Positions 3,878 through 29,545 of a stretch of DNA of 29,851 nt are shown piece after piece; position 1 is the first letter of the stretch, and each line of letters starts with the position of its first letter. A program made the position numbers and the translations under genes. Origin of the DNA: JBDROU01 sp043809745 [NCBI: bacterium] (lineage in GTDB: Bacteria; Elusimicrobiota; JBDRMW01); assembly GCA_043809745.1 (NCBI GenBank), contig JBDROU010000092.1:1-29851 (forward strand), written 5' to 3'. The notes below the pieces were generated by a model. That model ran no database searches. It was given only the letters and a program-made list of their open reading frames with translations, and was not told where the DNA came from.

Positions 3878-3884
3878 CGTTTTA

Positions 3885-4673: not shown

Positions 4674-4678
4674 AAATT

Positions 4679-5098
4679 ATGTTAATGCCGAAGAGGGTTA
4701 AATACAGAAAATCGCAAAGAGGCAGGTTAAGAGGTGTTGCCTGTAGAGGCAACAAAATTTCATTTGGGGAGTACGGATTAAAGGCTATAGAATCCGCGTG
4801 GATCACCGCCAGGCAGATTGAAGCGGCGCGCGTTGCTCTGGTTAGGTGCACCAAAAAAGGCGGTAAGATATGGTTGCGTATTTTCCCTGATAAACCTGTA
4901 TCAAAGAAGCCTGCTGAAACAAGAATGGGGAAGGGCAAAGGAGCCCCTGAGTTTTGGGTTGCTCCCGTTAAAAGAGGCAGAATTCTATTTGAGATCGAAG
5001 GCGTGCCAAAAGATCAAGTGAAAGAGGCGATGAAAAATGCCGGTCAAAAATTACCTATTAAAACGAAATTTTGCGAACGGGAAGGGATGGTGTTTTAG
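4679..5098 (+). CDS. rplP: 50S ribosomal protein L16
   Basis: L16 helps position aminoacyl-tRNA in the 50S A site. The 139-residue product has the full family pattern: [19 protein letters not shown] at the start, FGEYGLKA near residue 31, [13 protein letters not shown] near residue 41, and [20 protein letters not shown] near residue 82. The first ATG is preferred over the ATG two codons later because an AAGGA sequence lies about 12 bases upstream and the family usually starts MLMP. rpmC starts 2 bp after the stop. Confidence 0.96.
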
Positions 5099-5100
5099 CG

Positions 5101-5310
5101 ATGAAGGTGCAAGAGGAATTGATGAATTTAACTAAGCTTGAGTTGGAATCAAAATTGTTTCAGACCAAAGAGTCTATGTTTCAGGCACGTATGAGCAATT
5201 CAAACGGCACATTGAAGAACCCGCTTAAGATACGCAGTTTAAGAAGGAAAATTGCCCGTATTAAGACATTGCTTAATAATATAAAGGATGAAGCGCAGGT
5301 TTTGAAGTAA
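5101..5310 (+). CDS. rpmC: 50S ribosomal protein L29
   Basis: L29 is a small two-helix protein near the tunnel exit, next to L23. I chose the ATG at 5101, giving 69 residues beginning MKVQEELMNLTKLELESKL. The core has FQARMSNSNGTLKNPLKIRSLRRKIARIKT, the normal L29 pattern. An in-frame upstream start at 5071 would overlap rplP and adds residues with no family match. The gene follows rplP by only 2 bp, so coupled translation is likely. Confidence 0.93.
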   Translation: MKVQEELMNLTKLELESKLFQTKESMFQARMSNSNGTLKNPLKIRSLRRKIARIKTLLNNIKDEAQVLK

Positions 5311-5336
5311 TAATAAAATCAAAGAGGAACATAATA

Positions 5337-5597
5337 ATGACTGAAAAAGATAACAGGAAGCGCTTAACCGGAAAAGTAGTTTCGGATAAGATGGATAAGA
5401 CTAGGGTGGTTGCCGTTTCAAGAACTGTAACAGATCCGTTTTACAGCAAAGTTATAAGAATTAAAAAGAAGTATTATATTCATGATCAGAATAATGAATG
5501 CAGTTTAGGCGATGTTGTGCAGTTCAGGGAGAGCAGGCCGTTGTCAAAGCTTAAGAGATGGAGATTAGATAAAATACTCGTTAAGAGTAAAGCATAA
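5337..5597 (+). CDS. rpsQ: 30S ribosomal protein S17
   Basis: S17 is a primary 16S rRNA-binding OB-fold protein. The 86-residue product shows RKRLTGKVVSDKMDKTRVVAV at the start, the KKYYIHDQNNECSLGDVVQFRESRPLSKLKRWRL block and a short basic C terminus, all typical. An AGAGGAA ribosome-binding site lies about 9 bases before the ATG. It sits between rpmC and rplN in the expected order. Confidence 0.95.
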   Translation: MTEKDNRKRLTGKVVSDKMDKTRVVAVSRTVTDPFYSKVIRIKKKYYIHDQNNECSLGDVVQFRESRPLSKLKRWRLDKILVKSKA

Positions 5598-5649
5598 ACA
5601 TTGATCCGGCGCGCAATACCGAATCAGTGGAAAGAAAAGAAAAAATAAA

Positions 5650-6018
5650 ATGATTCAGGAACAAACGATACTAAATGTAGCAGACAATTCAGGAGCGCGG
5701 AAGGTTATGTGTTTCAGGGTGTTGGGCGGCACCAGAAAACGTTATGCCACTTTGGGAGATGTTATAGTTGCCAGCGTAAAATCAGCCTTGCCGGGCGCGG
5801 CGATAAAAAAGGGAGATGTTGTAAAGGCTGTTATAGTGCGTATTGTAAAGGAACGCAGAAGATTGGATGGGTCATACATAAAGTTTGATGAAAATGCGTG
5901 TGTGGTTATAAGCGATGATCTGGAACCAAAAGGAACTCGAATATTCGGTCCGGTTGCGCGTGAGTTGAGAGATAAGAAATACTTAAAGATAATTTCGCTT
6001 GCGCCCGAGGTGCTGTAG
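5650..6018 (+). CDS. rplN: 50S ribosomal protein L14
   Basis: L14 lies at the subunit interface and forms bridges to 16S rRNA; it is also the RsfS target. The 122-residue product has exactly the family length. It contains [43 protein letters not shown], the VVKAVIVRI strand and the C-terminal [26 protein letters not shown]. It is the first gene of the spc-type block and follows rpsQ by 52 bp, with no sign of a terminator between them. Confidence 0.97.
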
Positions 6019-6051
6019 GAGATATAAGAATTCATTTGGAGGAAGTAAAAT

Positions 6052-6384
6052 ATGCTGCATATAAAGAAAAAAGATAAAGTAGTCGTGCTCTCCGGCAAGG
6101 ATAAGGGTAAGCGGGGAGAAGTCCTGAAAATAATGGCTGACACACAGAAAGCGGTAGTCTCTAAGATCAGTTTTATAAAGAGACATACCAGGCCGACTCA
6201 AACGGATCCTGGTGGAATAAGGGAAAAAGAAGCCCCGATACATGTGTCAAAGCTGATGCTTGTTTGTCCTAAATGCGACAAACCTACGCGTCTGAAGGTA
6301 GACTATACAATGGACGGCAAAAAGATAAGGATTTGCAAGCAGTGCGGGGAGATGGTTTTATCAACTAGCGATAATAAATATTGA
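6052..6384 (+). CDS. rplX: 50S ribosomal protein L24, zinc-ribbon form
   Basis: L24 is a KOW-motif assembly initiator for the 50S subunit. The 110-residue product has the KOW segment ([20 protein letters not shown]) and the [18 protein letters not shown] strand. It then carries a four-cysteine ribbon, C72-x2-C75 and C95-x2-C98, which should bind zinc. A strong GGAGGAAG ribosome-binding site lies before the ATG. rplE follows after 7 bp. Confidence 0.95.
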
Positions 6385-6391
6385 GGTAGAT

Positions 6392-6946
6392 ATGAAAGAA
6401 AAAAATACGGCAAGAGTAAAAGAGAAATATCATAAAGAAGTAATTCCGTCGTTAATGAAGAATTTAGGAATTGAAAACGTATGCCAAGTCCCACGTTTGG
6501 AGAAAATAGTTGTTAATATAGGCGTGAATGATGCTAAGGAGAATATCAAGGTTCTGGACATCGCCCAGGTTGAACTTGCTGCAATTGCCGGGCAGAAACC
6601 AAAGGTTACGCGCGCCAAGAAATCTATCTCTAATTTTAAGCTCAGGGAAGGCATGCCCATTGGATTGACGGTTACGTTAAGGGGCAACAAGATGTATGAG
6701 TTTTTGGATCGGTTGATCAGCATAGCTATACCAAGAATAAGAGATTTCCGTGGACTTAATAAAAATAGTTTTGACGGTAAAGGTAATTATAATTTGGGGC
6801 TGAGAGAACAGTATATATTTCCGGAAATTGATTTAGATAAGTCGGATAAAACCCGCGGTATGAATATTACAATAGCGACTACCGCATCGAATAATAATGA
6901 GGCATTAGAATTGCTTAAATTGCTGGGAATGCCTTTTAAGATGTAA
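6392..6946 (+). CDS. rplE: 50S ribosomal protein L5
   Basis: L5 binds 5S rRNA and the P-site tRNA elbow. The 184-residue product matches the usual 179–185. It contains [16 protein letters not shown], a [32 protein letters not shown] block near residue 70, and the [29 protein letters not shown] signature. It closes with the [27 protein letters not shown] segment. It begins 7 bp after rplX and precedes rpsN by 33 bp. Confidence 0.97.
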
Positions 6947-6979
6947 ACAAAATAATTATATGCAGTAAAGGAGTATTGA

Positions 6980-7165
6980 ATGGCAACTATATCTTCCATG
7001 GCTAAGATGAGAAAGAATTTGAAATATTCAACTAGATACCGCAATCGATGCAGAAATTGCGGGAGAGCGAGAGGATATTATAGGGATTTTGGCCTGTGCC
7101 GGTTATGTTTTAGAAAACTTGTTTCTAACGCGGAAATTCCCGGCATAAGGATTGCAAGTTGGTAA
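6980..7165 (+). CDS. rpsN: 30S ribosomal protein S14, zinc-binding (type Z)
   Basis: S14 is a 30S head protein. At 61 residues this is the short zinc form rather than the roughly 100-residue zinc-free form. Cysteines C24, C27, C40 and C43 form the two CxxC pairs within RCRNCGRARGYYRDFGLCRLCFR, and the C terminus ends in GIRIASW as in the family. The start MATISSMAKMRK is a little longer than the common MAKKS start; the AAAGGAG before the ATG at 6980 supports it. Confidence 0.96.
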   Translation: MATISSMAKMRKNLKYSTRYRNRCRNCGRARGYYRDFGLCRLCFRKLVSNAEIPGIRIASW

Positions 7166-7192
7166 ATATTTTAGTGAGAGAGGGGAGTTAAA

Positions 7193-7591
7193 ATGGCAAG
7201 TACTGATCCGATTTCGGATATGCTGACAGTTATTCGTAATGCAAATATGAGATTATTGGAGAAGGTTGATCTCCCTGCGTCCGGAATTAAGGGTGAAATT
7301 GTAAAAATATTAAAGCAGGAAGGATATGTGGCAAATTATAAACGTATTGATGACAGGAAGCAGGGTTTGCTCAGAATTTATTTAAAATATGGGACAGATA
7401 AATCTAAGGTTTTAACAAATTTAAGAAGAATATCTAAACCCGGGTTGAGGGTCTACAAAAATTGGGATACTATCCCAAAAGGAAAAGAAGGTTTTGGGAT
7501 TTTTATATTATCTACATCTAAAGGTGTGATGACAGATAGAAAATGCCGCGAGCAAAAAGTCGGCGGCGAATTAATTTGCGAGGTGTGGTAA
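7193..7591 (+). CDS. rpsH: 30S ribosomal protein S8
   Basis: S8 binds the central domain of 16S rRNA and, in enterobacteria, represses the spc operon. The 132-residue product has the normal length. It shows the DPISDMLTVIRNANMRL start, KGEIVKILKQEGYV, LRRISKPGLRVY, and the C-terminal GFGIFILSTSKGVMTDRKCREQKVGGELICEVW signature. rplF begins 3 bp after the stop. Confidence 0.97.
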   Translation: MASTDPISDMLTVIRNANMRLLEKVDLPASGIKGEIVKILKQEGYVANYKRIDDRKQGLLRIYLKYGTDKSKVLTNLRRISKPGLRVYKNWDTIPKGKEGFGIFILSTSKGVMTDRKCREQKVGGELICEVW

Positions 7592-7594
7592 ACC

Positions 7595-8170
7595 ATGAGC
7601 AGAGTCGGCAAAAATCCGGTAATCATTCCGAAAGATGTTAAAGTTGCGCTGAATGACGGTGTTATATCTGTTAAAGGCCCTAAGGGGTCGCAGAGCTTAA
7701 AGCTTCCTAATATGATAGATGCTGTAATCGAAAATGATAAAATTATATTAAAAGTTAAAGATGATGATAAAAACAAGGATAAATCAACTGGCGCGCTTCA
7801 TGGTTTAACTAGAGCAAAGGTTAATAATCTGGTTCAGGGCGTTTTTCAGGGATTTCAGAAGAATCTTTCAATCGTTGGGGTGGGATACCGTGCTCAATCT
7901 GCCGGTACTTCGTTAAATTTGCAGTTGGGTTTTTCTCATCCTATAGAGTTCAAGCTTCCTGATGGGATAACCGCTCAGGTAGAAAAACAAACTTTGATTA
8001 AGTTAGCCGGTATTGATAAAGAACTTCTCGGTGAGATTGCCGCGAAGATTCGCGCATTAAGGCCTCCGGAACCGTATAAGGGCAAGGGAATACGATATTC
8101 TGACGAAAAGGTTTTACGTAAAGCAGGAAAAGTTGCTGGTTCAGGCGCTGGCGCAAAGGGAGGAAAATAA
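7595..8170 (+). CDS. rplF: 50S ribosomal protein L6
   Basis: L6 is a two-domain 50S protein near the factor-binding site. The 191-residue product carries MSRVGKNPVIIPKDV, LHGLTRAKVNNLVQGVFQGF at the interdomain region, the GVGYRAQ strand and the PPEPYKGKGIRYSDEKVLRKAGK signature. It is about 10–14 residues longer than average, mostly a Lys/Asp-rich loop near residues 52–60 and a short glycine-rich tail. It starts 3 bp after rpsH. Confidence 0.96.
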   Translation: MSRVGKNPVIIPKDVKVALNDGVISVKGPKGSQSLKLPNMIDAVIENDKIILKVKDDDKNKDKSTGALHGLTRAKVNNLVQGVFQGFQKNLSIVGVGYRAQSAGTSLNLQLGFSHPIEFKLPDGITAQVEKQTLIKLAGIDKELLGEIAAKIRALRPPEPYKGKGIRYSDEKVLRKAGKVAGSGAGAKGGK

Positions 8171-8174
8171 AAAT

Positions 8175-8534
8175 ATGATTTCGCCGAATAAACGATATCT
8201 AATAAGAAAGAAAAGAAGTAAAAAATATATCACAGGCAGCAGCAAAAAACCCCGTCTTTATGTGTACAGGTCTCTAAAACATATCTATGCTCAGCTTATA
8301 GATGATATTTCTGGGCGTACTATTCTGAGTATAGGGAGTTTAACTAAGGCCATGAATGAGAAAGGCAAAATGCAAGGAAATATAAAAGGCGCTGAATTTG
8401 TCGGAGAAGAATTGGCAAAGAAAGCCGACAAACTTGGAATAAAGGAAGTAATATTCGATAGAGGCGGAAGAATATATCACGGCCGCGTTAAGGCTCTTGC
8501 TGAAGGGGCGCGAAAAGGCGGATTAAAATTTTAA
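8175..8534 (+). CDS. rplR: 50S ribosomal protein L18
   Basis: L18 binds 5S rRNA together with L5. The ATG at 8175 gives 119 residues, the normal length, preceded by an AAGGGAGG ribosome-binding site inside the end of rplF. An upstream in-frame start at 8133 would only add residues overlapping rplF. Family motifs are KPRLYVYRSLKHIYAQLIDD and the C-terminal VIFDRGGRIYHGRVKALAEGARKGGLKF. Confidence 0.95.
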   Translation: MISPNKRYLIRKKRSKKYITGSSKKPRLYVYRSLKHIYAQLIDDISGRTILSIGSLTKAMNEKGKMQGNIKGAEFVGEELAKKADKLGIKEVIFDRGGRIYHGRVKALAEGARKGGLKF

Positions 8535-8542
8535 TATAGTGA

Positions 8543-8560
8543 AGCTGTTAAAAGACAGCT
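8543..8560 (+). other. Small perfect stem-loop between rplR and rpsE
   Basis: AGCTGT at 8543–8548 and ACAGCT at 8555–8560 form a 6-bp stem with a 6-base loop in the 58-bp rplR–rpsE gap. No U-run follows, so it is not a convincing terminator. It could be an RNA-processing or translational-control hairpin, or chance. Confidence 0.3.
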
Positions 8561-8592
8561 AGAGTTACGCAAAAAAGGGGAGGACACAAATT

Positions 8593-9102
8593 TTGGCTGA
8601 CAAAAGGGTTGCTGATAAAATTTCCGGAGAGCAGGGATTAAAAGAGACGGTGGTCACTATCAACCGCGTTACAAAAGTGGTAAAAGGCGGTAAAAGGTTT
8701 TCATTTAATGCGCTTGTAGTGGTGGGTGATAGAAACGGGCAGGTTGGTGTTGGTTTGGGTAAGGCAAAGGAAGTTCAGGCTGCTATTCAGAAAGCGATTG
8801 TTAAAGCTGGTAAAAATATGATTAAAGTAGCTTTGGTGGGTACTACAATACCTCATCAGGTTACAGGAATTTTCGGTGCAGGAAAGGTGCTTCTAAAACC
8901 TGCTGCGCCCGGAACAGGGGTTATCGCAGGAGGGAGTGTTCGTGCGGTTATTGAAGCGTGCGGAATTAGTGATGTTCTAACAAAATCGCTCCGCACTTCT
9001 AATCCTTTTAATGTTGTATATGCTACTATAGAGGCTTTGAATACGCTTAGAACAAAAGAGGAAGTTGCAAGGATCAGGGAAAAAGAAGTTGGAGAGATTT
9101 AA
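8593..9102 (+). CDS. rpsE: 30S ribosomal protein S5
   Basis: S5 contributes to decoding fidelity and the mRNA entry channel. It begins with TTG at 8593, supported by AAAAGGGGAGGA 8–19 bases upstream and by family length (169 residues). The double-stranded RNA-binding-like N domain shows [24 protein letters not shown], then [17 protein letters not shown], and the C domain has the [20 protein letters not shown] block. The usual next gene, rpmD (L30), is missing: rplO starts only 30 bp later. Confidence 0.96.
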
Positions 9103-9132
9103 TAAATATACAGAACAGAGTGGTAGTTAATT

Positions 9133-9582
9133 ATGAAAATTACAGACTTAAGGCCGTTTGAAGGTTCTAGAAAGAGGAGAAAGAGAATCGGGTGCGGAGA
9201 AGGTTCCGGTCACGGCGGAAGCGCTACCCGCGGGATGAAGGGGCAAAGATCGAGATCCGGCGATGGGAAACTTGTCGGGTTCGAAGGCGGCCAGATGCCG
9301 CTTTTAAGGCGTATTCCTAAAAGAGGATTTTCGCATAAGCGGTTTACAAAACCGTCTGCTATATTTAATTTAGGCTGGTTAGAAAAAAAGTTCGGGGATA
9401 ATTTGGAGATTAATCCCAAAAGCCTCTTTCTTAAAGGTTTGATTAAAGGCGGCGATAAAATAAAAATATTATCTCAAGGCGAGCTCACAAAGCCGTTGAA
9501 TATAAAAGCGCACGTTTTTTCTAAAACTGCTATTGAGAAAATACAAAATGCAAAAGGGAAATACGAATTGTTAAAGTCGTAG
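9133..9582 (+). CDS. rplO: 50S ribosomal protein L15
   Basis: L15 is a late-assembly 50S protein. The 149-residue product has the glycine/arginine-rich N-terminal tail typical of the family (RKRRKRIGCGEGSGHGGSATRGMKGQ). It continues with GFEGGQMPLLRRIPKRGF and a C-terminal globular domain with the GDKIKILSQGELTKPLNIKAHVFSKTA segment. It stands directly after rpsE, with no rpmD between, and 22 bp before secY. Confidence 0.96.
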   Translation: MKITDLRPFEGSRKRRKRIGCGEGSGHGGSATRGMKGQRSRSGDGKLVGFEGGQMPLLRRIPKRGFSHKRFTKPSAIFNLGWLEKKFGDNLEINPKSLFLKGLIKGGDKIKILSQGELTKPLNIKAHVFSKTAIEKIQNAKGKYELLKS

Positions 9583-9604
9583 ATTAAAATAAAGGATACA
9601 ATTA

Positions 9605-10933
9605 ATGATTCAATCTTTTGGTGATTTATTTAAGATACCGGAATTAAAGAAAAGAATTATTTTTACATTGATGATAATTGCTGTTTACCGCGTTGGTGCG
9701 GCAATACCTATACCCGGTATTAATGCTGAAGCGTTAAAAGCGATTTTTGAAAGTCAGGCTAATACAATGCTGGGATTTTTAGATATTTTCTCAGGCGGGG
9801 CATTAAGCAGGCTTTCGATATTTTCCATGGGTATAATGCCTTATATTAACGCTTCTATTATTATGTCTTTATTGACCGGCGCCCACGTTCTGCCTTATTT
9901 AGACAGGTTGTCAAAAGAAGGGGAGCATGGCCGTAAGAAGATTAATCAGATTACACGTTATATGACTTTAATACTGGGAGCTCTTCAGTCATTCGGCTTA
10001 ACAATGGTAATAAAGAATTTTCCTGTGCCCGGCAACATACCGGTAATAAAAGATGATACTACGGGGTTTATTGCTTTAACTGTACTAACGCTAACCACGG
10101 GGACAGTCTTCATAATGTGGCTTGGCGAACAGATTACCGAGAAGGGAATAGGGAACGGTATTTCACTTATAATTTTTGCAGGAATAATTTGCCGCCTCCC
10201 ATCTGCCAGCAGGGATCTTTATAGATTGGTGAGATTAGAGGAACTCTCATTATTCGCAGCAATTTTTTTAATAGCTGTTGTTTTTGTTGTAACAGGATTA
10301 GTTGTATGGGTTGAAACGGCTCAGAGGAAAATCCCGGTGCAATACGCGAAGCGCGTAATGGGGAGAAAGATGTACGGAGGCGCAAGCACATATCTGCCGA
10401 TAAAAGTAGATCAGTCCGGAGTTATAGCTGTAATTTTTGCTGTGTCGCTGCTTACGATGCCGATGACGGTTGCGCAATTCTTTCCCCAATCCGCAATAAC
10501 TAGAATCCTTCAAAGCTGGTGGAGCAACAACTCCATATATTATGAGTTGATATACGCAAGTTTGATCATTTTCTTCTGTTACTTTTATAACTCCGTTAGT
10601 TTTAATCCCACTGAACTGGCTGAAAATATGAAAAAGTGGGGTGGTTTTGTGCCCGGGATTAGGCCCGGACCGCCGACTGCAGAGTATATATCCAGAATTC
10701 TTGAAAGAATAACATTAGGCGGGGCGATATTTGTCGCATTAATAGCAGTAATGCCGGATTACTTGCGTAAATGGCTTAATGCGCCGTTCTTTTTCGGCGG
10801 CACGGCATTGCTGATTGTTGTAGGTGTTGCGCTGGACACGATCGGACAGATGGAGTCGCACCTGATTATGCGGCATTATGACGGATTTATGAAAAAAGGC
10901 AGAATCAAAGGCCGTTGGTTTAATGTTAAATAG
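9605..10933 (+). CDS. secY: Preprotein translocase subunit SecY
   Basis: SecY is the channel-forming subunit of the inner-membrane SecYEG translocon. The 442-residue product has the family length and about ten predicted membrane segments. Motifs include YRVGAAIPIPGI after the first segment, the SIFSMGIMPYINASIIMSLL region, ITEKGIGNGISLIIFAGI near residue 178 and the cytoplasmic loop ETAQRKIPVQYAKRV. The FNPTELAENMKKWGGFVPGIRPG block near residue 335 is present too. An AAAGGA ribosome-binding site lies about 8 bases before the ATG. Its place between rplO and adk is standard. Confidence 0.97.
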   Translation: MIQSFGDLFKIPELKKRIIFTLMIIAVYRVGAAIPIPGINAEALKAIFESQANTMLGFLDIFSGGALSRLSIFSMGIMPYINASIIMSLLTGAHVLPYLDRLSKEGEHGRKKINQITRYMTLILGALQSFGLTMVIKNFPVPGNIPVIKDDTTGFIALTVLTLTTGTVFIMWLGEQITEKGIGNGISLIIFAGIICRLPSASRDLYRLVRLEELSLFAAIFLIAVVFVVTGLVVWVETAQRKIPVQYAKRVMGRKMYGGASTYLPIKVDQSGVIAVIFAVSLLTMPMTVAQFFPQSAITRILQSWWSNNSIYYELIYASLIIFFCYFYNSVSFNPTELAENMKKWGGFVPGIRPGPPTAEYISRILERITLGGAIFVALIAVMPDYLRKWLNAPFFFGGTALLIVVGVALDTIGQMESHLIMRHYDGFMKKGRIKGRWFNVK

Positions 10934-10965
10934 CGCTCAGATGTTGGATTTGAAATAGGAAAATT

Positions 10966-11622
10966 ATGAAATTAATTATTGTCGGACCTCCTGGTGCCGG
11001 GAAGGGTACTCAGTCTGTAAGGATAGCCGATGAGCTAAATATACCCAGGGTTGTAACTGGCGACATATTAAGGGAATCGATAAGAAAAGGCAGTCCTTTG
11101 GGATTAAAAGCCAAGGCTCAAATGGACTCAGGCGGTTTGGTTTCCGATGATTTGGTCATTGATATAGTAAAAGAAAAACTAGATGATCCTCAGTTTAAGG
11201 ACAATTTTTTACTTGATGGATTTCCCCGCAATATTAACCAAGCTTTGGTTTTAGATAAGTATCTGGCAGAGAAGAATCAATCAATAGATATTGTAGTAGA
11301 GGTCAGTGTTTCTGATGATGTAATAGTCGACAGATTGTCAAAAAGGAGAATTTGTTTGTCGTGCGGTAAGGTATATAATCTTAATACAATACGTCCGGCT
11401 AAAGAGAGTATCTGTGATGCCTGCTCCGGCAAACTGATCGTTAGAGATGATGACAAACCGGATGTGGTAAAGAAACGTTTGGAGATCTATCATGCGCTAA
11501 CACAACCGCTGATTAATTTTTATGAGGATAAGGGTGTTTTTACAAGAATTGATGGCGCCCATGAGATAGGCAAGGTTTACAGGGAGTTGTTGGATCTAGT
11601 TGATAGCAAAATAGCAAAGTGA
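10966..11622 (+). CDS. adk: Adenylate kinase, zinc-lid form
   Basis: Adenylate kinase interconverts ATP + AMP and 2 ADP in the cytoplasm. The 218-residue product has the P-loop GPPGAGKGT at residues 7–15, the GDILRESI AMP-binding segment and the LLDGFPRNINQA signature near residue 84. The long LID domain carries C130-x2-C133 and C150-x2-C153, the zinc-binding arrangement. The KKRLEIYHALTQPLI segment follows. The stop overlaps the start of map by four bases (GTGA), suggesting coupled translation. Confidence 0.97.
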   Translation: MKLIIVGPPGAGKGTQSVRIADELNIPRVVTGDILRESIRKGSPLGLKAKAQMDSGGLVSDDLVIDIVKEKLDDPQFKDNFLLDGFPRNINQALVLDKYLAEKNQSIDIVVEVSVSDDVIVDRLSKRRICLSCGKVYNLNTIRPAKESICDACSGKLIVRDDDKPDVVKKRLEIYHALTQPLINFYEDKGVFTRIDGAHEIGKVYRELLDLVDSKIAK

Positions 11623-12377
11623 AGAAAATTTATTTAAATAGTTTGGAGGAGTTAAAGAAAATACAAAGTGCTGCAGAGACTACGGCATTAATCTTAAGTG
11701 AAGTCTCGACACTTGTGAAACCGGGTATAACAACAAAATATTTAGATGAAGCTGCTGCCGGGCTTATGAAACAGCACGGTGTTAAGGCGGCGTTCCTGAA
11801 TTATCGGGGTTATCCAGCTCATATTTGCACCTCGATTGACGAAGAAGTGGTTCATGGCATACCAAGCTCTAAAAGGTTTTTGAATGAAGGACAAACTATA
11901 AGCATTGATTTGGGTGTTTTAAGAGATGGCTACTACGGAGATATGGCAGTAACGCTTCCTGTTGGGAGCATAAGCGAAGAAAAGAAGAAGTTATTGAAAA
12001 TCGCGGAAGAAGCTCTCAAATGTGCCATAGATCAATGCAGGGTTGGTTTCAGGCTGGGCGATGTGTCGAGCAGTATTCAAAAAAAGGCTGAATCTGCTGG
12101 ATATAGTGTTGTAAGGGATTATGTAGGGCACGGAATAGGGCGCGCGATGCACGAGGAGCCGCAGATACCTAACTATGGTATGCCCGGGACAGGGATAAGG
12201 CTTAAGAGCGGCATGGTCTTTGCGTTGGAACCAATGGTAAATACTAAGACTCATGAAGTTGAAGTTTTAAAAGATGGGTGGACGGTTGTAACAAAGGATA
12301 GGAAACCTTCGGCGCATTTTGAGAAGATGGTTGCTATTACAGAAGAAGGCCCAAAGGTTCTTGCAACATTAAAGTAA
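11619..12377 (+). CDS. map: Methionine aminopeptidase, type I
   Basis: This enzyme removes the initiator methionine from nascent proteins. The 252-residue product starts at GTG, which overlaps the adk stop. The pita-bread fold motifs are visible: SIDEEVVHGIPS with the first active-site histidine, SIDLGVLRDGYYGDMAVT with two metal-binding aspartates, and the GHGIGRAMHEEPQIPNYG histidine. FALEPMV and HFEKMVAITEEG supply the glutamate ligands. There is no N-terminal zinc-finger extension. A 97-bp gap separates it from infA. Confidence 0.97.
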   Translation: MKKIYLNSLEELKKIQSAAETTALILSEVSTLVKPGITTKYLDEAAAGLMKQHGVKAAFLNYRGYPAHICTSIDEEVVHGIPSSKRFLNEGQTISIDLGVLRDGYYGDMAVTLPVGSISEEKKKLLKIAEEALKCAIDQCRVGFRLGDVSSSIQKKAESAGYSVVRDYVGHGIGRAMHEEPQIPNYGMPGTGIRLKSGMVFALEPMVNTKTHEVEVLKDGWTVVTKDRKPSAHFEKMVAITEEGPKVLATLK

Positions 12378-12394
12378 AACCGCAAATTATAGTA

Positions 12395-12435
12395 TTGTAA
12401 TTTAAAAGAACATAGTTGTTATATGAACCCGGTTC
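12395..12435 (+). promoter_or_regulatory. Weak promoter-like pair and an 11-bp dyad before infA
   Basis: In the map–infA gap, TTGTAA at 12395–12400 and TTATAT at 12419–12424 are 18 bp apart, a weak sigma70-like pair. Immediately downstream, GAACC-C-GGTTC at 12425–12435 is a perfect dyad about one base. Together they could mark an internal start for infA-rpmJ-rpsM and following genes, but both are short in an AT-rich gap. Confidence 0.25.
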
Positions 12436-12474
12436 TAAATATGTTCCGGATCTTGAAAAATAGGAAGATAATAA

Positions 12475-12693
12475 ATGGGAAAAGAAGACAAGATTGAAGT
12501 TGAGGGGAAAGTCTTAGAAGCTTTGCCGAACGCTATGTTTAAAGTGGAGCTTCCGGGAGGGCATAAGGTTTTAGCGCATATATCAGGAAAGATGAGGATG
12601 TATTATATTAAAATACTTCCCGGTGATAAGGTTAAAATGGAGTTGTCCCCGTACGATTTGACTCGCGGAAGGATAACCTTCCGGTCTAAATAA
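12475..12693 (+). CDS. infA: Translation initiation factor IF-1
   Basis: IF-1 is an OB-fold factor that occupies the 30S A site during initiation. The 72-residue product is the exact family length. It has [65 protein letters not shown]. The ribosome-binding sequence is AGGAAG, about 10 bases before the ATG. rpmJ follows after 24 bp. Confidence 0.97.
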
Positions 12694-12717
12694 TGAAGGA
12701 ATTGGAGAAAATATATA

Positions 12718-12831
12718 ATGAAAGTAAGAGCTTCTGTGAAACCAATCTGTAATAAGTGTAAAGTAATAAAAAGAAAAAGGGTAGTTAGAATTGTCTGTTC
12801 AAACCCAAAACACAAACAGAGGCAGGGATAA
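12718..12831 (+). CDS. rpmJ: 50S ribosomal protein L36
   Basis: L36 is the smallest 50S protein. The ATG at 12718 opens 37 codons, the standard length, beginning [20 protein letters not shown] and ending KHKQRQG. The zinc ligands C11, C14, C27 and H32 are all present, so this is the zinc form. An AATTGGAGAAA ribosome-binding site lies upstream, and the gene is in its normal place between infA and rpsM. Confidence 0.96.
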
Positions 12832-12857
12832 AATTTTATAATTTAATTGGAGGAAAC

Positions 12858-13253
12858 ATGGCTCGAGTTGCCGGGGTGGATTTACCAAAAGACAAACGGA
12901 TAGAGATAGCTATTACATATGTTTATGGAATAGGTAGATTTACTTCAGGAAAAATACTTTCCGAATTAGGCATAAATCCTGATACAAGGGTAAAGAATCT
13001 TACTGAATCCGAAGTAAATAAACTAAATTCAGTAATTACGCGTGAGTTTAAGGTTGAAGGTGATTTGAGGCGGGAAGTTCAGCAGAATATCAGAAGATTC
13101 ATTGATATAGGAAGTTACAGAGGATTAAGACACAGGAGGAATTTGCCGGCAAGAGGTCAGAGAACAAAGACAAATGCCAGAACAAAGCGCGGCAAGAGAA
13201 GGACTGTAGGTTCAGCTCGTGGTGTAGAAAAAGCTCCAGCCGCTGAGAGCTAA
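12858..13253 (+). CDS. rpsM: 30S ribosomal protein S13
   Basis: S13 contacts the P-site tRNA and forms inter-subunit bridges from the 30S head. The 131-residue product begins [20 protein letters not shown], has the helix-hairpin-helix segment [14 protein letters not shown], and ends with the [28 protein letters not shown] tail. The final 12 or so residues (ending EKAPAAES) are extra and less basic. TTGGAGGAAA is a strong ribosome-binding site. Confidence 0.96.
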
Positions 13254-13279
13254 ATATTAATTATTGAGGTAGATAATAA

Positions 13280-13726
13280 ATGAATGAAGAAATGTCTAGC
13301 GAAAAAAAAGAAGAAGTAAGCAAAGCAACTTCGAAAAAACCAAAGAGTAAAGGAAGATCCAAAAAGAAAGTCTGGAAAAATATTGCTCAGGCGAGGGCCA
13401 ATATACAGTCATCATTTAATAACACAGCGGTTACTATAGCGGATGAAAAGGGAAATACTATTGCTTGGTCCACAGCAGGGGCCTGCGGTTTTAAGGGAAC
13501 AAAGAAAGGCACACCCTTTGCAGCTCAGATTACATCTGAAAGCGCTGCAAAGAAAGCAAAAGAATTAGGAGTAAAGAGCGTATCTGTGTTTGTTCAGGGG
13601 CCTGGTTCGGGCAGAGAGACTGCAATTAGAGCGCTGCAGACAGCGGGTTTAACCATTGTTTCTATTAGGGATGTAACCCCTATCCCTCATAATGGCTGCA
13701 GACCGCCAAAACCAAGAAGGGTTTAA
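13280..13726 (+). CDS. rpsK: 30S ribosomal protein S11 with charged N-terminal extension
   Basis: S11 lines the platform of the 30S subunit and contacts mRNA at the E site. The core is clear: [58 protein letters not shown] and the terminal [16 protein letters not shown]. At 148 residues it is roughly 20 longer than usual. The surplus is a Lys/Glu/Ser-rich N-terminal stretch over residues 1–32. The ATG at 13280 lies 26 bp after rpsM; a shorter product would lack a recognisable alternative start in the extension. Confidence 0.95.
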
Positions 13727-13783
13727 ATAAGGAATATAGGAAGTAGATTATATATCAAATGTTAGTTTAAGGAGGTGTATTAA

Positions 13784-14410
13784 TTGGCTAGATATCATGG
13801 ACCTGTATGCAGGTTATGTCGAAGGGAAGGTGTAAAATTATTCTTAAAAGGTGAAAAGTGTTCTGCGAAATGCGTGTTAGATAAAAGAGCTACCCCGCCT
13901 GGACAGGCAAAAAAATCCCTTAAGATGAAAACATCTGAATATAGCAAAAGATTACGGGAAAAACAAAAGGCCCGTCAGTATATAGGTATGCTGGAAAAAC
14001 AATTTAGACGCTACTTCGAAAAATCGGAAAAACTGAAAGGATTAACAGGTGAAAATTTGCTGTGTATGTTAGAGACTCGATTAGATAATGTATGCAGGCG
14101 AATAGGTTTTAGCACATCTCTCAAAGGTGCCAGGCAGATGGTTTCTCACGGGCATATTCAAGTAAATGGCAGGAAAGTAGATATACCTTCTTTTCATGTG
14201 CAACCCGGAGATACAATTCAATTACTTGAAAACATGAAGAATAATGTTTTTGTTTCAAAGTCGTTAGAATTTTCCAGTGCCAGAGATCTTCCTTCTTGGT
14301 TGGAATATAAAAAGGATAGCTTGACAGCAAAAGTTGTTAAATTACCCGGTCGTGATGAAATCTCAATTCCGGTAAGCGAGCAGTTAATTGTGGAGTTGTA
14401 TTCTAAATAG
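13784..14410 (+). CDS. rpsD: 30S ribosomal protein S4, zinc form
   Basis: S4 nucleates 30S assembly by binding 16S rRNA and in many bacteria represses the alpha operon. It starts at TTG, fixed by AAGGAGGTG 7 bases upstream and by the MARYHGPVCRLCRREG N terminus. The 208-residue product has cysteines C9, C12, C26 and C30, the zinc-binding N-terminal arrangement. It then has the SEYSKRLREKQKARQYIGMLEKQFRRYF helix block and an S4 RNA-binding domain (LETRLDNVCRRIGFSTSLKGARQMVSHGHIQVNGRKVDIPS). A 106-bp gap follows before rpoA. Confidence 0.96.
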   Translation: MARYHGPVCRLCRREGVKLFLKGEKCSAKCVLDKRATPPGQAKKSLKMKTSEYSKRLREKQKARQYIGMLEKQFRRYFEKSEKLKGLTGENLLCMLETRLDNVCRRIGFSTSLKGARQMVSHGHIQVNGRKVDIPSFHVQPGDTIQLLENMKNNVFVSKSLEFSSARDLPSWLEYKKDSLTAKVVKLPGRDEISIPVSEQLIVELYSK

Positions 14411-14468
14411 AAAAAGTATCATACAGAGCATCAGCGTTGAAGCATATTAGTTGCAGCATGATTAGTAA

Positions 14469-14474
14469 TATAAT
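14469..14474 (+). promoter_or_regulatory. Perfect -10 hexamer (TATAAT) upstream of rpoA
   Basis: A consensus TATAAT lies 43 bases before the rpoA ATG, in the longest gap (106 bp) of the alpha block. No good -35 sits 16–18 bp upstream; the best spacing gives ATTAGT. It may be an internal promoter for rpoA-rplQ, or a chance match in an AT-rich gap. No terminator hairpin was seen in the gap. Confidence 0.35.
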
Positions 14475-14516
14475 ATTGTAATTTTAAGCAGAAATATTAA
14501 AGGGAGGCAAAACAGT

Positions 14517-15482
14517 ATGAAGTTTAATGATTTAGTTATTCCTCGGAAGCTGGATTTTATTAAGGAAAGCTTAACAGAAGATTATGGCAGATTTTTCGCT
14601 GAACCTTTTGAAAGGGGTTTTGCCCATACGATAGGTAACTCTTTAAGAAGAATTCTACTAGGCAGTTTGGAAGGTGCTGCTGTAACAGCAGTAAAGGTTA
14701 AAGGAGCATTGCATGAGTTTTCAACGATTAAAGGATTAAAGGAAGATGTGATTTCAATGATATTAAATCTGAGGCAGCTGAAGATGAAAATATTTTCAGA
14801 AGGTCCTGAGATGCTTTACCTTGCGCATAAGAAAGATGGAGTTATTCGGGCCAAGGAGATACAATCAAATCAAAATGTAGAAATACTAAATCCTGATCTT
14901 TATCTTGCTACTGCTCAGCACGGAGCGGATCTTGATCTGGAGATTGAGGTGTCGCGCGGTAGAGGGTATTTGCCGGCAGAAAAAAATAAGAAAGAAGAGC
15001 ATTCAGTAGGAACAATCCCGGTTGACGCGTTTTTTTCCCCGGTTAAAAAGGTCTATTATGAAGTGGGGAATGCAAGAGTAGGCCAGGTTACAGATTATGA
15101 TAGATTGGTTATCGAGATCTGGACAAATGGCAGCGTGTCCCCTGCGGATGCATTGGCATACGCGGCAAAGATTATCAAAGACAGCCTATCAATCTTTATT
15201 AATTTTGACGAAGAAGAAGTTCAAGTAAAAGATGTCCCGGTGCCAAAGTTGGAGGAAGATTCAAAGATGAAGGATATTCTTACGCAACCTGTCGATATAA
15301 TTGAATTATCTGTAAGGGCTTCTAACTGTTTAAAAATTGCTCGGATAAAAACAATCGGTGAGTTGGTAAGGAAAAAAGATGATGAACTTTTGTCATATAA
15401 AAATTTTGGCAACAAGTCGCTTGATGAGATAAAAGAGAGGCTTAAAGAGCTTCAATTATCATTAGGGATGGAAATAAGATGA
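14517..15482 (+). CDS. rpoA: DNA-directed RNA polymerase subunit alpha
   Basis: Alpha dimerises to seed RNA polymerase assembly; its C-terminal domain contacts UP elements and activators. The 321-residue product has the N-terminal domain motifs AEPFERGFAHTIGNSLRRILLGSLEGAAVTAVKV and HEFSTIKGLKEDV, with the second half of that domain at YYEVGNARVGQVTDYDRLVIEIWTNGS. The C-terminal helix-hairpin-helix domain is complete (RASNCLKIARIKTIGELV, FGNKSLDEIKERL). GGGAGGC precedes the ATG. The stop overlaps the rplQ start as ATGA. Confidence 0.97.
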   Translation: MKFNDLVIPRKLDFIKESLTEDYGRFFAEPFERGFAHTIGNSLRRILLGSLEGAAVTAVKVKGALHEFSTIKGLKEDVISMILNLRQLKMKIFSEGPEMLYLAHKKDGVIRAKEIQSNQNVEILNPDLYLATAQHGADLDLEIEVSRGRGYLPAEKNKKEEHSVGTIPVDAFFSPVKKVYYEVGNARVGQVTDYDRLVIEIWTNGSVSPADALAYAAKIIKDSLSIFINFDEEEVQVKDVPVPKLEEDSKMKDILTQPVDIIELSVRASNCLKIARIKTIGELVRKKDDELLSYKNFGNKSLDEIKERLKELQLSLGMEIR

Positions 15483-15832
15483 GCAAATTCAGTAAATCAA
15501 AAAAACTTTCAAGAACTTATGGCCACAAGAAAGCTATGTTAAAAAATATGCTTGCAAGTCTGGTGCTTCATGAGCAAATAAAAACAACTGCCGCAAAAGC
15601 GCACACGCTGAAAACTTCTGCGGATAAGATGATATCAAGAGCAAAAAAGAAGGACCTTAATGCTATTAGATATGTGTATAAAAGCGTAAATAATAAAGAT
15701 GCCCGTAAAAAAATATTTGATGTATTGGTCCCTCGTTATGAAGCCAGGATTGGCGGAGTTGCTCAAGTTTTCAGCATTGGCAAAAGGCTCTCTGACAATT
15801 CTGAAATGGCATTAATAAAGTTAATGAGTTAA
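15479..15832 (+). CDS. rplQ: 50S ribosomal protein L17
   Basis: L17 lies near the 50S tunnel exit on the solvent side. The 117-residue product has LSRTYGHKKAMLKNMLASLVLHEQIKTTAAKAHTLK and the C-terminal YEARIGGVAQVFSIGKRLSDNSEMALIKL segment. The ATG overlaps the rpoA stop by four bases, so translation is coupled. It is the last gene of the ribosomal superoperon; I see no clear intrinsic terminator in the 61 bp before mreB. Confidence 0.95.
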   Translation: MSKFSKSKKLSRTYGHKKAMLKNMLASLVLHEQIKTTAAKAHTLKTSADKMISRAKKKDLNAIRYVYKSVNNKDARKKIFDVLVPRYEARIGGVAQVFSIGKRLSDNSEMALIKLMS

Positions 15833-25659: not shown

Positions 25660-26802
25660 TTAGTTTTCAAATCCTGATTTTAATGCGGTTAAAGGCGTAA
25701 CTATTATATTATTTGATAATTTATATTTGGTTTTTCCTGGGTATATAATCCATAACTTGCTTAGATTCAGATCTTGGATTGCAATCTGCATAGATTTTGT
25801 AAGTTTTGGTGCATCGGAATACTTGAATTCAGCGCCCCAATTTTTTCCCATATCCTGCCAAAACAAATCAAGCTCAGCGCCGGAATGTATATTCCAGAAA
25901 TAAAGTTCTTCATCTCTCTTCTTTAGAATTTTAGCGACACATTCCAAGGCAAATCCTTCCCAAGAAGCGCCAAGTTTATTATGAGTGTTAAGTTGTTTTT
26001 TGCTGCTTATTGACATTAAAGAATGAAATATTCCGGAATCTCTTATATATAACTTTGGTCTTTTCACAAGTCTTTTTCCGATATTTGTAAACCATGGCTG
26101 CAGTGTTCTAACCATAAATGTATGTTCTAAAATGTCTATATATTTTCTAACTGTCATATCAGCTATGCCAAAAGACCTTCCAAGTTCTGAATAATTTAAT
26201 ATCTGTCCATGGTAATGACTCAGCATTATCCAAAATTTTCTTAATGTGTTAGATGTTATAGTAATACCCAGTTGAGGTATGTCTCGTTCTAGAAATGTCC
26301 TAATATAGTTTTCAATCCAAAGGAAACTTGCAGCATCAGAAGATGCGGTAAAGGCTCTTGGGAATCCTCCGCGAAGCCATAATGAATTCACTTCGGTTTC
26401 CTTTATTTCCGAAAGTCCGAACCCGCCTAAATAATAATAACCTATTCTTCCCGCAAGAGATTCCGAACTCTGCCGCATTAATACACCTGATGCGCTGCCG
26501 AGTATTAAATATTTTTGCTCTGGTTTATTATCAACAAGGTACCTGATTAATTTGAATAATTCAGGCAGTCGTTGCACTTCGTCAATTACAATTAAGCCCT
26601 TTAAATCTTCCAATGTAAGCTGCGGGTTCTCGAATTGAGCTAAGTCTCTGGGATTTTCTAAATCAAAATAATGATCATACTTAAATTGTTTTGCAAGAAA
26701 TGTTTTACCTGATTGTCTAGGCCCCAATAAAGCTGTAACTGGAAAATTATTAATTATCCGTTTGACATTGTCGATATCCTGGGGTCTTTTGATTATCTTC
26801 AT
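25660..26802 (-). CDS. AAA+ ATPase with C-terminal DUF4143 domain
   Basis: A 380-residue ATPase of a widespread family without firm function. Walker A is GPRQSGKT at residues 27–34, Walker B ends in D74-E75 (LIVIDEVQRLP), and the YLILGSASGVLM stretch supplies the sensor-like segment. A winged-helix-like segment lies mid-protein. The C-terminal DUF4143 part has an E310-L-D312…E325-F-K327 pattern like the PD-(D/E)XK nuclease fold; catalysis is unproven. It is convergent with rng, so it lies outside the core operon. No Shine-Dalgarno precedes the ATG; a promoter sits directly upstream. Members have been linked to accessory islands, but that is family context, not seen here. Confidence 0.85.
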   Translation of the reverse strand: MKIIKRPQDIDNVKRIINNFPVTALLGPRQSGKTFLAKQFKYDHYFDLENPRDLAQFENPQLTLEDLKGLIVIDEVQRLPELFKLIRYLVDNKPEQKYLILGSASGVLMRQSSESLAGRIGYYYLGGFGLSEIKETEVNSLWLRGGFPRAFTASSDAASFLWIENYIRTFLERDIPQLGITITSNTLRKFWIMLSHYHGQILNYSELGRSFGIADMTVRKYIDILEHTFMVRTLQPWFTNIGKRLVKRPKLYIRDSGIFHSLMSISSKKQLNTHNKLGASWEGFALECVAKILKKRDEELYFWNIHSGAELDLFWQDMGKNWGAEFKYSDAPKLTKSMQIAIQDLNLSKLWIIYPGKTKYKLSNNIIVTPLTALKSGFEN

Positions 26803-28118: not shown

Positions 28119-28255
28119 ATAAATCTCCTTTAATCGATTTTTTAATTATAACTATTATAATTATTTCTTAAGAATAATTCTACTAATTTATAATAATTGA
28201 ATTACTTTAGACTATTAAATTGGTAAAGACAGATGCGCTAAGTAAATCATTGGGT
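28119..28255. other. AT-rich intergenic region upstream of the aminotransferase
   Basis: This is most of the 206-bp gap between the divergent aminotransferase and second ATPase genes. It is strongly AT-rich, with several TATAAT-like strings on both strands, so I could not choose one promoter for the aminotransferase. A 10-bp palindrome, TTCTTAAGAA, lies at 28165–28174. A partial match to the operator arms (GACTATTAAA) lies at 28210–28219. Confidence 0.4.
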
Positions 28256-28286
28256 GTCTATATTAATGTAACATATTAAAATAGTC
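28256..28286. promoter_or_regulatory. Operator-like dyad 1 upstream of the second ATPase
   Basis: GTCTATATTAA at 28256–28266 and TTAAAATAGTC at 28276–28286 are imperfect inverted arms (9 of 11 positions) around a 9-base centre. The element is repeated 34 bp downstream as dyad 2. Confidence 0.45.
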
Positions 28287-28287
28287 A

Positions 28288-28316
28288 TTGACTAAATTAA
28301 TGTAATGTGTTAATAT
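28288..28316 (+). promoter_or_regulatory. Promoter for the second ATPase, near-leaderless
   Basis: TTGACT (28288–28293) and TAATAT (28311–28316) are 17 bp apart; TATAGT at 28314–28319 is an alternative -10 with a 20-bp gap. Either gives a start at or within two bases of the ATG at 28325. No Shine-Dalgarno sequence is visible. Dyad 2 covers the spacer and the -10. Confidence 0.5.
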
Positions 28317-28320
28317 AGTC
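28290..28320. promoter_or_regulatory. Operator-like dyad 2 over the promoter of the second ATPase
   Basis: GACTAAATTAA at 28290–28300 and TTAATATAGTC at 28310–28320 are inverted arms matching at 10 of 11 positions around a 9-base centre. As a direct repeat of dyad 1 it matches at 25 of 31 positions. It overlaps the -35 end, spacer and -10, where a bound repressor would block transcription. Confidence 0.5.
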
Positions 28321-28324
28321 GTGT

Positions 28325-29545
28325 ATGAAGCATCGCTACTTAACATCTATTATAAAAGGGCTTTGTTTTGATAGCCATAAGATGGCCTTTGTTTCAGGGC
28401 CGAGACAGTGCGGGAAAACAACTTTTGCAAAGGCCCTCCTCCATAACCGCGGTGCGGGTTCTTACTTTAATTGGGATGAAACAAATTTCCGTAGATTATG
28501 GATTAAGAATCCATCACAGATAGTGCCAAAAATGAAAAAATATACTCCCTTAGTTATTCTTGATGAGATTCATAAAGCAAAGTTATGGAAAAGAACCTTA
28601 AAGGGAGTTTATGATACTCAGGAGTCCCCAGTAGACATATTAGTAACAGGGAGTGCAAGACTAAATGTATATAAAAAAGGCAGTGATAGTTTATTCGGGC
28701 GCTATTTCAATTTTAGATTGCATCCATTTACTTTAAGGGAAATTGATAAAATATCTCAAATAGCTACAGAGCATTTTATTGATAAACTCTTTTCACGTTC
28801 CCAGAAGTTATCAAACTCCAATATAACACAGTTTGATACATTGTTCAAATTTGGTGGATTCCCTGAACCATTATTTGCAGAGAGTGAAAAATTAGCAAGA
28901 TTATGGAAAAGAAGCAGAATAGATAAGGTTATTCGAGAAGATCTCCGGGATTTGAGCCGTATCCCTGAACTCAGTCAGATTGAGATGTTGGTAGCGCTTC
29001 TGCCAGAAAGAGTGGGATCTCTTTTTAGCATAGTTTCTTTACGTGAATATCTCGAGGTGAGCTTCCCAACAGTAAAACGTTGGATTAATTATCTAAAGGA
29101 GCTGTATTATCTCTTCGAAATAAAACCATATACTAAATCAATATCTCGTTCTTTACGGAAGGGTGGGAAAATATATTTATGGGATTACAGCGAAGTGACT
29201 CAGGAAGCAGCTCGTTTTGAAAACTTAATAGCCTGCCATCTTCTTAAAATATGTCATTACTGGACAGACTCCGGTGAAGGTCAATTTGATTTATTTTATC
29301 TTCGTGACAAAGAGAAACATGAAATCGATTTTCTTGTAACGAAAGACAAAATACCTTGGCTCCCAATTGAAGTTAAACTAAATGACACATCGCCTTCACC
29401 CCACTGGAGAAAGTTTTTAAAACAATTAAATTTAACAAAATCAATACAGATTGTAAAAGCTCATGGAGTTTGGAAAATGCATTCATTAGATGGTTCAAAT
29501 ATACTTATCGCAAGTGCCAGTGAAGTGCTTTCTTACTTTATTTAA
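28325..29545 (+). CDS. AAA+ ATPase with C-terminal DUF4143 domain (second, divergent copy)
   Basis: A 406-residue protein of the same family as the ATPase at 25660–26802 but clearly divergent. Walker A is GPRQCGKT at residues 25–32, Walker B ends in D80-E81 (LVILDEIHKAK) and DILVTGSARL follows. The DUF4143 part has E333-I-D335…E349-V-K351, a nuclease-like arrangement without proven activity. A helix-turn-helix-like segment sits near residues 238–262 (LREYLEVSFPTVKRWINYLKE). It is preceded by two dyad elements and a promoter abutting the start. Function unknown; the direction is opposite to the neighbouring aminotransferase. Confidence 0.85.
   Translation: MKHRYLTSIIKGLCFDSHKMAFVSGPRQCGKTTFAKALLHNRGAGSYFNWDETNFRRLWIKNPSQIVPKMKKYTPLVILDEIHKAKLWKRTLKGVYDTQESPVDILVTGSARLNVYKKGSDSLFGRYFNFRLHPFTLREIDKISQIATEHFIDKLFSRSQKLSNSNITQFDTLFKFGGFPEPLFAESEKLARLWKRSRIDKVIREDLRDLSRIPELSQIEMLVALLPERVGSLFSIVSLREYLEVSFPTVKRWINYLKELYYLFEIKPYTKSISRSLRKGGKIYLWDYSEVTQEAARFENLIACHLLKICHYWTDSGEGQFDLFYLRDKEKHEIDFLVTKDKIPWLPIEVKLNDTSPSPHWRKFLKQLNLTKSIQIVKAHGVWKMHSLDGSNILIASASEVLSYFI

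What the first reader, a model, noticed from the sequence alone, without database searches (positions are those of the whole stretch)
28256..28320. Two tandem 31-bp dyads overlapping the second ATPase promoter
Each element is an inverted repeat (9/11 and 10/11 arm matches) and the two match each other at 25 of 31 positions, 34 bp apart. The second covers the -35 end, spacer and -10, so a repressor could silence the ATPase. I know of no regulator with this site, and none is encoded here except possibly the ATPase itself through its helix-turn-helix-like segment.
Basis: partly seen in the sequence, partly recalled or inferred. Interest (0 to 1): 0.6.

Follow-up and report, generated by a model that had tools for sequence, protein, structure and literature searches.

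The report
Self-read operator of an ATPase-nuclease
The paired palindromes in front of this gene are best explained as the docking site of the gene's own protein, a member of a very common but untested candidate anti-virus ATPase family whose members each appear to read their own version of the same promoter site.

Summary
In detail: two 31-bp dyads, 34 bp apart, cover the promoter of the AAA_14/DUF4143 ATPase at 28325-29545. They form one array of four half-sites in alternating orientation. The -35 starts at the array centre and the promoter is probably leaderless. The architecture is shared: of 229 non-redundant homologues, 128 exceed the best of 229 shuffles, against 0 of 292 control ORFs, and a 32-bp repeat dominates. 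Each half-site has a constant box (TGACTATTTT) followed by a short core that is mostly uniform within a gene but differs between genes. The core covaries with one protein position, residue 248 in the recognition helix of the ATPase's own winged-helix domain. That residue ranks first of 366 columns in phylogenetically independent pairs. It predicts base 12 in 108 of 143 genes from proteins less than 50% identical (baseline 31%). The best reading is an autoregulatory operator bound by the ATPase itself, probably repressive. Binding and repression are inferred, not shown. The protein also carries an intact PD-(D/E)XK-type motif and belongs to PDC-S01, an abundant defence candidate. My keyword searches of held papers listed no operator or DNA target for this family.

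The parts
28255..28271 (+). half-site A (TGTCTATATTAATGTAA)
   Evidence: four-half-site register centred 28288, step 17, agreement 0.716
28271..28287 (-). half-site B (TGACTATTTTAATATGT on the - strand); A+B form the first dyad, centre 28271
28289..28305 (+). half-site C (TGACTAAATTAATGTAA), begins inside the -35
28305..28321 (-). half-site D (CGACTATATTAACACAT on the - strand), covers the -10; C+D form the second dyad, centre 28305
28288..28316 (+). sigma-70-type promoter TTGACT-17-TAATAT
   Evidence: -35 starts at the array centre also in 86 of the 101 genes examined (there with a half-base offset, step 16)
28325..29545 (+). AAA_14 + DUF4143 ATPase (PDC-S01 family), 406 aa, probably leaderless start
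   Evidence: Pfam 3e-26 and 1.9e-23, PADLOC PDC-S01 6.5e-54, AF2 model pLDDT 94
28970..29179 (+). winged-helix domain (residues about 216-285)
   Evidence: helices 216-229, 236-243, 247-259, then strands 263-268 and 282-285, in the model
29063..29101 (+). recognition helix, residues 247-259; P248 (29066-29068) is the proposed specificity residue
   Evidence: covariation with operator bases 11 and 12; DSSP of the model
29219..29377 (+). PD-(D/E)XK-type motif residues E299, D335, E349, K351
   Evidence: E299, D335 and E349 invariant and K351 in 90% or more of 61 sequences; fold matches McrBC and EcoT38I at Z 8.2-8.4

Best explanation
The array is the autoregulatory operator of the ATPase gene. 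The ATPase's own winged-helix domain reads four half-sites, probably as two dimers on two dyads about three helical turns apart. It occludes the -35 and -10 boxes and so holds its own leaderless transcription down. Each half-site has a family-wide constant box (TGACTATTTT) that also supplies the promoter hexamers, and a gene-specific core at positions 11-13 read mainly by residue 248. In the window that residue is Pro and the core is AAT. Shown by computation: the array, its conservation upstream of homologues, the within-gene uniformity of the variable core, and its covariation with residue 248. Inferred: physical binding, dimer stoichiometry, repression, and that ATP or nuclease state could relieve it.
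For: Lag-32 self-agreement upstream of 229 non-redundant homologues is 0.507 (other lags 5-49: 0.276 +/- 0.018; same genes at -130..-64: 0.272); it is 0.268 upstream of 292 control ORFs. 128 of 229 exceed the best shuffle (0.611); 0 of 292 control ORFs do, though 10 of 292 exceed the looser cut of 0.506. A central-dyad pattern hit 6 places in 247 genomes, all 6 in front of such ATPases (one broken); the reversed control hit once. Positions 11-13 agree within a gene at 0.66-0.72 but between genes at 0.27-0.42 (n=152). Half-sites A and B, outside the promoter hexamers, keep the constant box nearly as well as C and D, so RNA polymerase alone does not explain it (these 152 genes were chosen for a fair constant box pooled over all four). 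Residue 248 is the top column for base 11 (z 9.7) and base 12 (z 16.3, next 7.3). In 76 independent pairs, on a tree built without the helix, it is first of 366 columns for base 11 (p 3.8e-6) and base 12 (p 1.3e-6). Leave-relatives-out prediction of base 12 from residue 248 is right in 108 of 143; next best column 75 of 136, baseline 31%. All four other Pro-248 proteins among the 152 (37-42% identical to the window's) have A at base 12, as the window does.
Against: No binding or expression data exist. 40 of 229 homologues fail the score cut of 0.506 or a step of 16-17, and 37 of the other 189 have a weak constant box. The closest full-length homologue found, L062 (52-55% identical), has only a partial array, score 0.43. 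The window's step is 17, whereas 123 of the 128 best have 16. For base 13, residue 249 is only second in independent pairs (p 2.8e-3, not significant after correction). For base 11, residue 248 is not among the six best columns in leave-relatives-out prediction. Among pairs 62% or more identical, the contrast weakens: core bases agree in 150 of 192 with the same 248 and still in 27 of 55 with a different one. Other protein columns keep residual association (mean z of the rest 0.9-2.0 with the looser clusters).
Confidence: 0.82

Rival explanations
1. The ATPase binds the array, but as an activator or as a structural or partition complex (initiator- or centromere-like), and not as a repressor of its own promoter.
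For: Foldseek ranks RuvB first and Cdc6/Orc1 bound to origin DNA second for this AAA+/winged-helix arrangement, with low TM-scores; initiators often bind repeats beside their own gene (recalled). The upstream dyad A+B lies outside the promoter hexamers.
Against: In the 101 of 152 genes whose array centre lies 31-37.5 nt before the ATG, the -35 starts at the centre in 86 and the -10 ends 6-7 nt before the ATG in 73. Dyad C+D buries both hexamers. I did not search for replication or partition partners.
Confidence: 0.1
2. A separate host repressor binds the array.
For: Such promoters are often controlled by unlinked regulators (general knowledge).
Against: A single host regulator does not explain why the core differs between genes of one genome (G195: six genes, five different cores) and tracks residue 248 of each ATPase.
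Confidence: 0.04
3. The array is chiefly the target or safety address of the ATPase-nuclease (cleavage, docking or self-marking), with transcription effects secondary.
For: Intact E299/D335/E349/K351 motif and PD-(D/E)XK-like fold. In G195 (4.2 Mb) a palindrome of the L084 core, with up to 3 mismatches, occurs at three places, each with 3 mismatches; two are the gene's own two dyads, and the reversed control also hit once per strand.
Against: Its position on the -35 and -10 is what an operator needs and a docking site does not.
Confidence: 0.1
4. Chance palindromes in AT-rich DNA.
For: The intergenic region is 21% GC.
Against: 0 of 3000 dinucleotide shuffles, 0 hits at 0.60 in 473,711 bases, and conservation in homologues.
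Confidence: 0.01

Closest known systems
PDC-S01 candidate defence proteins (AAA_14/PF13173 + DUF4143/PF13635)
   Same: Same domains and PADLOC family; ATPase fused to a PD-(D/E)XK domain as described for PDC-S01 (PMC12988326, passages)
   Different: The passages seen mention no operator, DNA target or regulation; here a self-specific operator and its reading residue are proposed
Archaeal ATPases SSO1545 (2fna) and PABY2304 (2qen)
   Same: Best structural matches over residues 1-294, Z 14.2 and 15.2
   Different: Aligned only up to residue 294, so not over the C-terminal nuclease-like domain; nothing on operators was looked up for them
Autoregulated HTH repressors (phage CI/Cro type, controller proteins of restriction-modification systems; recalled)
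   Same: Paired dyads over the protein's own promoter, recognition-helix residues setting specificity
Cdc6/Orc1 bound to origin DNA (2qby)
   Same: AAA+ plus winged helix bound to DNA (second Foldseek row, TM-score 0.32-0.34)
   Different: The array here is tied to a promoter; a replication role was not tested

Membership tests
PDC-S01 / DUF4143 ATPase | AAA_14 ATPase domain above curated cut-off | tested here: met
   92.4 bits, cut-off 27
PDC-S01 / DUF4143 ATPase | DUF4143 domain above curated cut-off | tested here: met
   83.4 bits, cut-off 28.1
PDC-S01 / DUF4143 ATPase | PADLOC PDC-S01 profile match | tested here: met
   6.5e-54
PDC-S01 / DUF4143 ATPase | PD-(D/E)XK nuclease-like domain with catalytic residues | tested here: met
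   E299, D335, E349 invariant and K351 nearly so in 61 sequences; C-terminal model aligns to McrBC and EcoT38I, Z 8.2-8.4 over 110-112 residues (such Z is modest, and the tied top row is a TBP-interacting protein; best Foldseek E 2.9e-3); catalysis not tested
PDC-S01 / DUF4143 ATPase | anti-phage activity | not testable with these tools
   no phage assay; experimental validation described as pending for most PDCs (PMC12988326, passage)
Autoregulatory operator | dyads overlapping the gene's own promoter | tested here: met
Autoregulatory operator | conserved upstream of homologous genes and not at control genes | tested here: met
   128 of 229 vs 0 of 292 above 0.611; 6 of 6 pattern hits
Autoregulatory operator | site specificity follows the protein's own DNA-reading residues | tested here: met
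   residue 248 with bases 11 and 12; base 13 inconclusive
Autoregulatory operator | purified protein binds and changes expression | not testable with these tools
   needs EMSA and reporter
Replication initiator with origin repeats (Orc1/Cdc6-like) | initiation from the array | not tested
   only a fold resemblance

The most novel reading that the evidence does not exclude
The ATPase-nuclease keeps a private DNA address at its own promoter. Operator and recognition helix co-diversify so that each copy recognises only its own gene. The promoter-bound protein acts as a guard: when invading DNA or a nucleotide signal pulls it off, its own expression is released and its STAND-like ATPase/PD-(D/E)XK module is armed. 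One of the commonest untested defence candidates would thus be a self-addressed transcriptional sensor.
Probability: 0.15. Interest if true: 0.88.

Novelty: new variant of a known kind. Interest (0 to 1): 0.72.

Why it matters
PDC-S01 is described as the fourth most common defence across prokaryotes, with 29,494 bacterial instances counted, while validation is pending for most such candidates (PMC12988326, passages). A predicted DNA site for many members, with a specificity residue, turns a protein of unknown biochemistry into one with an immediate binding assay, a reporter assay and a specificity-swap test. It also implies that its winged helix reads sequence specifically, which constrains any model of what its ATPase and nuclease do.

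Tried and rejected
No RNA family at gathering score and no tRNA in the window. Homologue searches with the single protein found nothing in genome contigs or viral contigs; ATPase-2 found nothing in viral contigs. A virus search with alignment A1 found 25 distant relatives (21-27% identical), not pursued. A search of 6 genomes of L010, L014, L018, L020, L026 and L029 at E 1e-60 found none. The window-like central dyad hit 4 viral contigs, two with the same flanks; by eye none shows the array, and no ORF over 60 aa starts within 80 nt downstream, so they were judged chance. Paralogue orthogonality: 2 of 78 within-genome pairs share a core against 4.3 expected, P=0.17; not shown; the subset at 45% identity or more (0 of 15) was chosen after seeing the data. 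The first mutual-information scan (68 genes) was noisy because rare residues inflated z; it was replaced. The ATPase-2 set shows no outstanding 32-bp lag (0.304, third; mean 0.277, sd 0.020).

Rows dropped and limits: 13 of 297 loci had no usable start or upstream, or a short ORF; 229 of 254 distinct proteins remained after removing those 85% or more identical; 40 of 229 were left out for score or step and 37 of the remaining 189 for a weak constant box before covariation (n=152). The homologues are those fetched (up to 30 loci a search, plus places asked for), not every match listed. Start codons were chosen by rule, so some array-to-ATG distances may be wrong. One search covers 101 of the 152 genes, chosen by array-to-ATG distance, and searched for hexamers only near the array. 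Shuffle controls are one mononucleotide shuffle a gene. Control ORFs are mechanical ORFs of 200 aa or more from L001-L031, not curated genes, scanned over 130 rather than 150 nt. Literature; listings only except the passages named; only open PMC papers are held, and the paper that defined PDC-S01 was not seen.

Full report
What is there. The two dyads are as described: 9/11 and 10/11 arm matches, 25 of 31 identical, 34 bp apart. A third dyad centred at 28288 makes the whole a run of four half-sites, + - + -, from 28255 to 28321 with a 17-bp step. Its four-way agreement, 0.716, was reached by none of 3000 dinucleotide shuffles (best 0.656). Nothing else in the window reaches 0.58, and nothing in 473,711 bases of 31 other loci reaches 0.60. 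The promoter-like TTGACT-17-TAATAT starts at the array centre, and the ATG follows 8 nt after the -10.

The gene. ORF 28325-29545 is an AAA_14 + DUF4143 protein, PADLOC family PDC-S01. The AlphaFold2 model (pLDDT 94) shows an ATPase domain, a winged helix with recognition helix 247-259, and a C-terminal domain. Modelled alone (pLDDT 94), that last domain aligns to McrBC and EcoT38I (Z 8.2-8.4, 110-112 residues; best Foldseek E 2.9e-3). Such Z values are modest, and a TBP-interacting protein ties for first. The domain carries E299, D335, E349 (invariant) and K351 (90% or more) in 61 sequences. Residues 1-294 match archaeal ATPases 2qen and 2fna best (Z 15.2 and 14.2). No clear sequence relative is solved (best E 0.04).

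Homologues. No genome is held for the window. Entry to relatives came through rpoA (best 56% to a 'Deltaproteobacteria' MAG, 52-55% to Nitrospirae). Searching G001-G007 and the phyla of G007, G001, G002 and G792 and fetching further places gave 297 ATPase-positive loci, 284 usable, 254 distinct proteins and 229 below 85% identity. Upstream of these, self-agreement at a lag of 32 bp is 0.507, against 0.276 +/- 0.018 at other lags; it is 0.272 further upstream in the same genes, and 0.268 for 292 control ORFs. The four-half-site score exceeds the best of 229 shuffles in 128 of 229 genes and in 0 of 292 controls (10 of 292 pass the looser 0.506); 123 of the 128 have a 16-bp step. The window's step of 17 is a minority form, and its closest full-length relative found, L062, has only a partial array (0.43). 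In the 101 genes (of 152) with the array centre 31-37.5 nt before the ATG, the -35 starts at the centre in 86, the -10 lies 6-7 nt before the ATG in 73, and a Shine-Dalgarno-like word occurs in 2. Hence the leaderless reading.

Exclusivity. The pattern WWATAGTCTTGACTATWW occurs 6 times in 247 genomes (reversed control: once), and all 6 places lie in front of such an ATPase, one of them broken. In G195 a palindrome of the L084 core, with up to 3 mismatches, is found at three places, each with 3 mismatches: the gene's own two dyads 32 bp apart and one other; the reversed control hit once per strand, so the third is at chance level.

Constant box and variable core. In 152 genes, positions 2-10 follow GACTATTTT. 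Positions 11, 12 and 13 agree among the four half-sites of one gene at 0.66, 0.68 and 0.72 but between genes at 0.27, 0.29 and 0.42; position 4 also varies between genes (0.79 vs 0.47). Positions 14 and 16 show less of this (0.40 vs 0.25 and 0.27), which serves as an internal control. Half-sites A and B, which are not promoter hexamers, keep the box nearly as well as C and D.

Who reads it. I asked which protein column tracks the core. With operator letters permuted only within protein clusters, residue 248 is first for base 11 (z 9.7) and base 12 (z 16.3, next 7.3), and second to 249 for base 13 (8.2 and 9.0). With tighter clusters it is again first for 11 and 12 (6.7 and 9.5) and second, behind residue 222, for 13 (4.8 vs 5.3). 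With 76 phylogenetically independent pairs on a tree that leaves out residues 244-256, 248 is first of 366 columns for base 11 (p 3.8e-6; next, residue 383, 1.9e-5) and base 12 (p 1.3e-6; next, residue 283, 5.8e-5); base 13 gives no column that survives correction. Predicting base 12 from residue 248 using only proteins under 50% identical is right in 108 of 143 cases; the next column reaches 75 of 136 and the baseline is 0.31. For base 11 residue 248 was not among the best six columns in that test, and for base 13 several columns were near 0.74 against a baseline of 0.66. The code: Asn with C12 in 31 of 36, Lys with G12 in 26 of 35, Arg with T11, G12 and C13 in 17 of 20 each, Pro with A12 in 5 of 5 (window included). 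Residue 248 is the second residue of the recognition helix. Among pairs 50-55% identical, the two core bases agree in 107 of 117 when 248 is the same and in 33 of 266 when it differs; at 62% identity or more the contrast is weaker, 150 of 192 and 27 of 55.

Mechanism. The simplest account is autoregulation: the ATPase's winged helices sit on two dyads about three turns apart and cover -35 and -10, so repression by occlusion is the likely sign. Binding, sign, and any role of ATP or the nuclease are inference. Diversification of the core between paralogues could avoid cross-talk, but the test was inconclusive (2 of 78 pairs share a core, 4.3 expected, P=0.17; even in G195 two of six genes share one). 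Bases 4 and 5 associate with residues outside the recognition helix (277, 329-330, 373) in some tests; I cannot yet explain this.

Known or new. DUF4143 appears in one held paper and PF13173 in one other. One passage lists a Thermus AAA_14/DUF4143 gene, TT_P0211, with fold change 6.6 in a plasmid-bearing strain (PMC4406477, passage), a lead only. PDC-S01 is named in three held papers; I read passages of two, and those passages describe abundance and architecture, not DNA targets. Keyword searches aimed at regulation or relatives of this family listed nothing on its regulation. Self-read operators are a known kind. A family-wide, co-diversifying operator read by a STAND-like ATPase with a nuclease motif is, as far as these searches show, a new variant.

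Noticed in passing
25660-26802 (-): A second PDC-S01 ATPase, from another subfamily. Relatives in the phylum of G002 often carry a single dyad over a leaderless-looking promoter (e.g. ACCATGAAAATC...GATTTTCATGGT type in L386, L388, L389, L392, L393); best dyad 10 or more of 12 in 9 of 39 rows (a few are the same gene twice) against 1.1% of shuffles. The window's own copy shows no clear dyad.
   Followed up: partly
L206 (G297:C74): An intact central dyad of the operator in front of a broken ATPase gene.
   Followed up: no
operator bases 4 and 5; protein residues 277, 329, 330, 373: These bases associate with residues in the wing and the C-terminal domain more than with the recognition helix; unexplained, possibly a second DNA contact.
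   Followed up: no
L068, L105, L113 and similar loci: A subgroup of 21 genes with half-site core TGC, most with Arg at 248, and a diverged constant box.
   Followed up: partly
189-15832: Ribosomal-protein operon with secY, adk, map and rpoA, followed by mreB and other cell-shape genes (names recalled from the translations); host phylum not determined, rpoA at most 56% identical to any hit.
   Followed up: no
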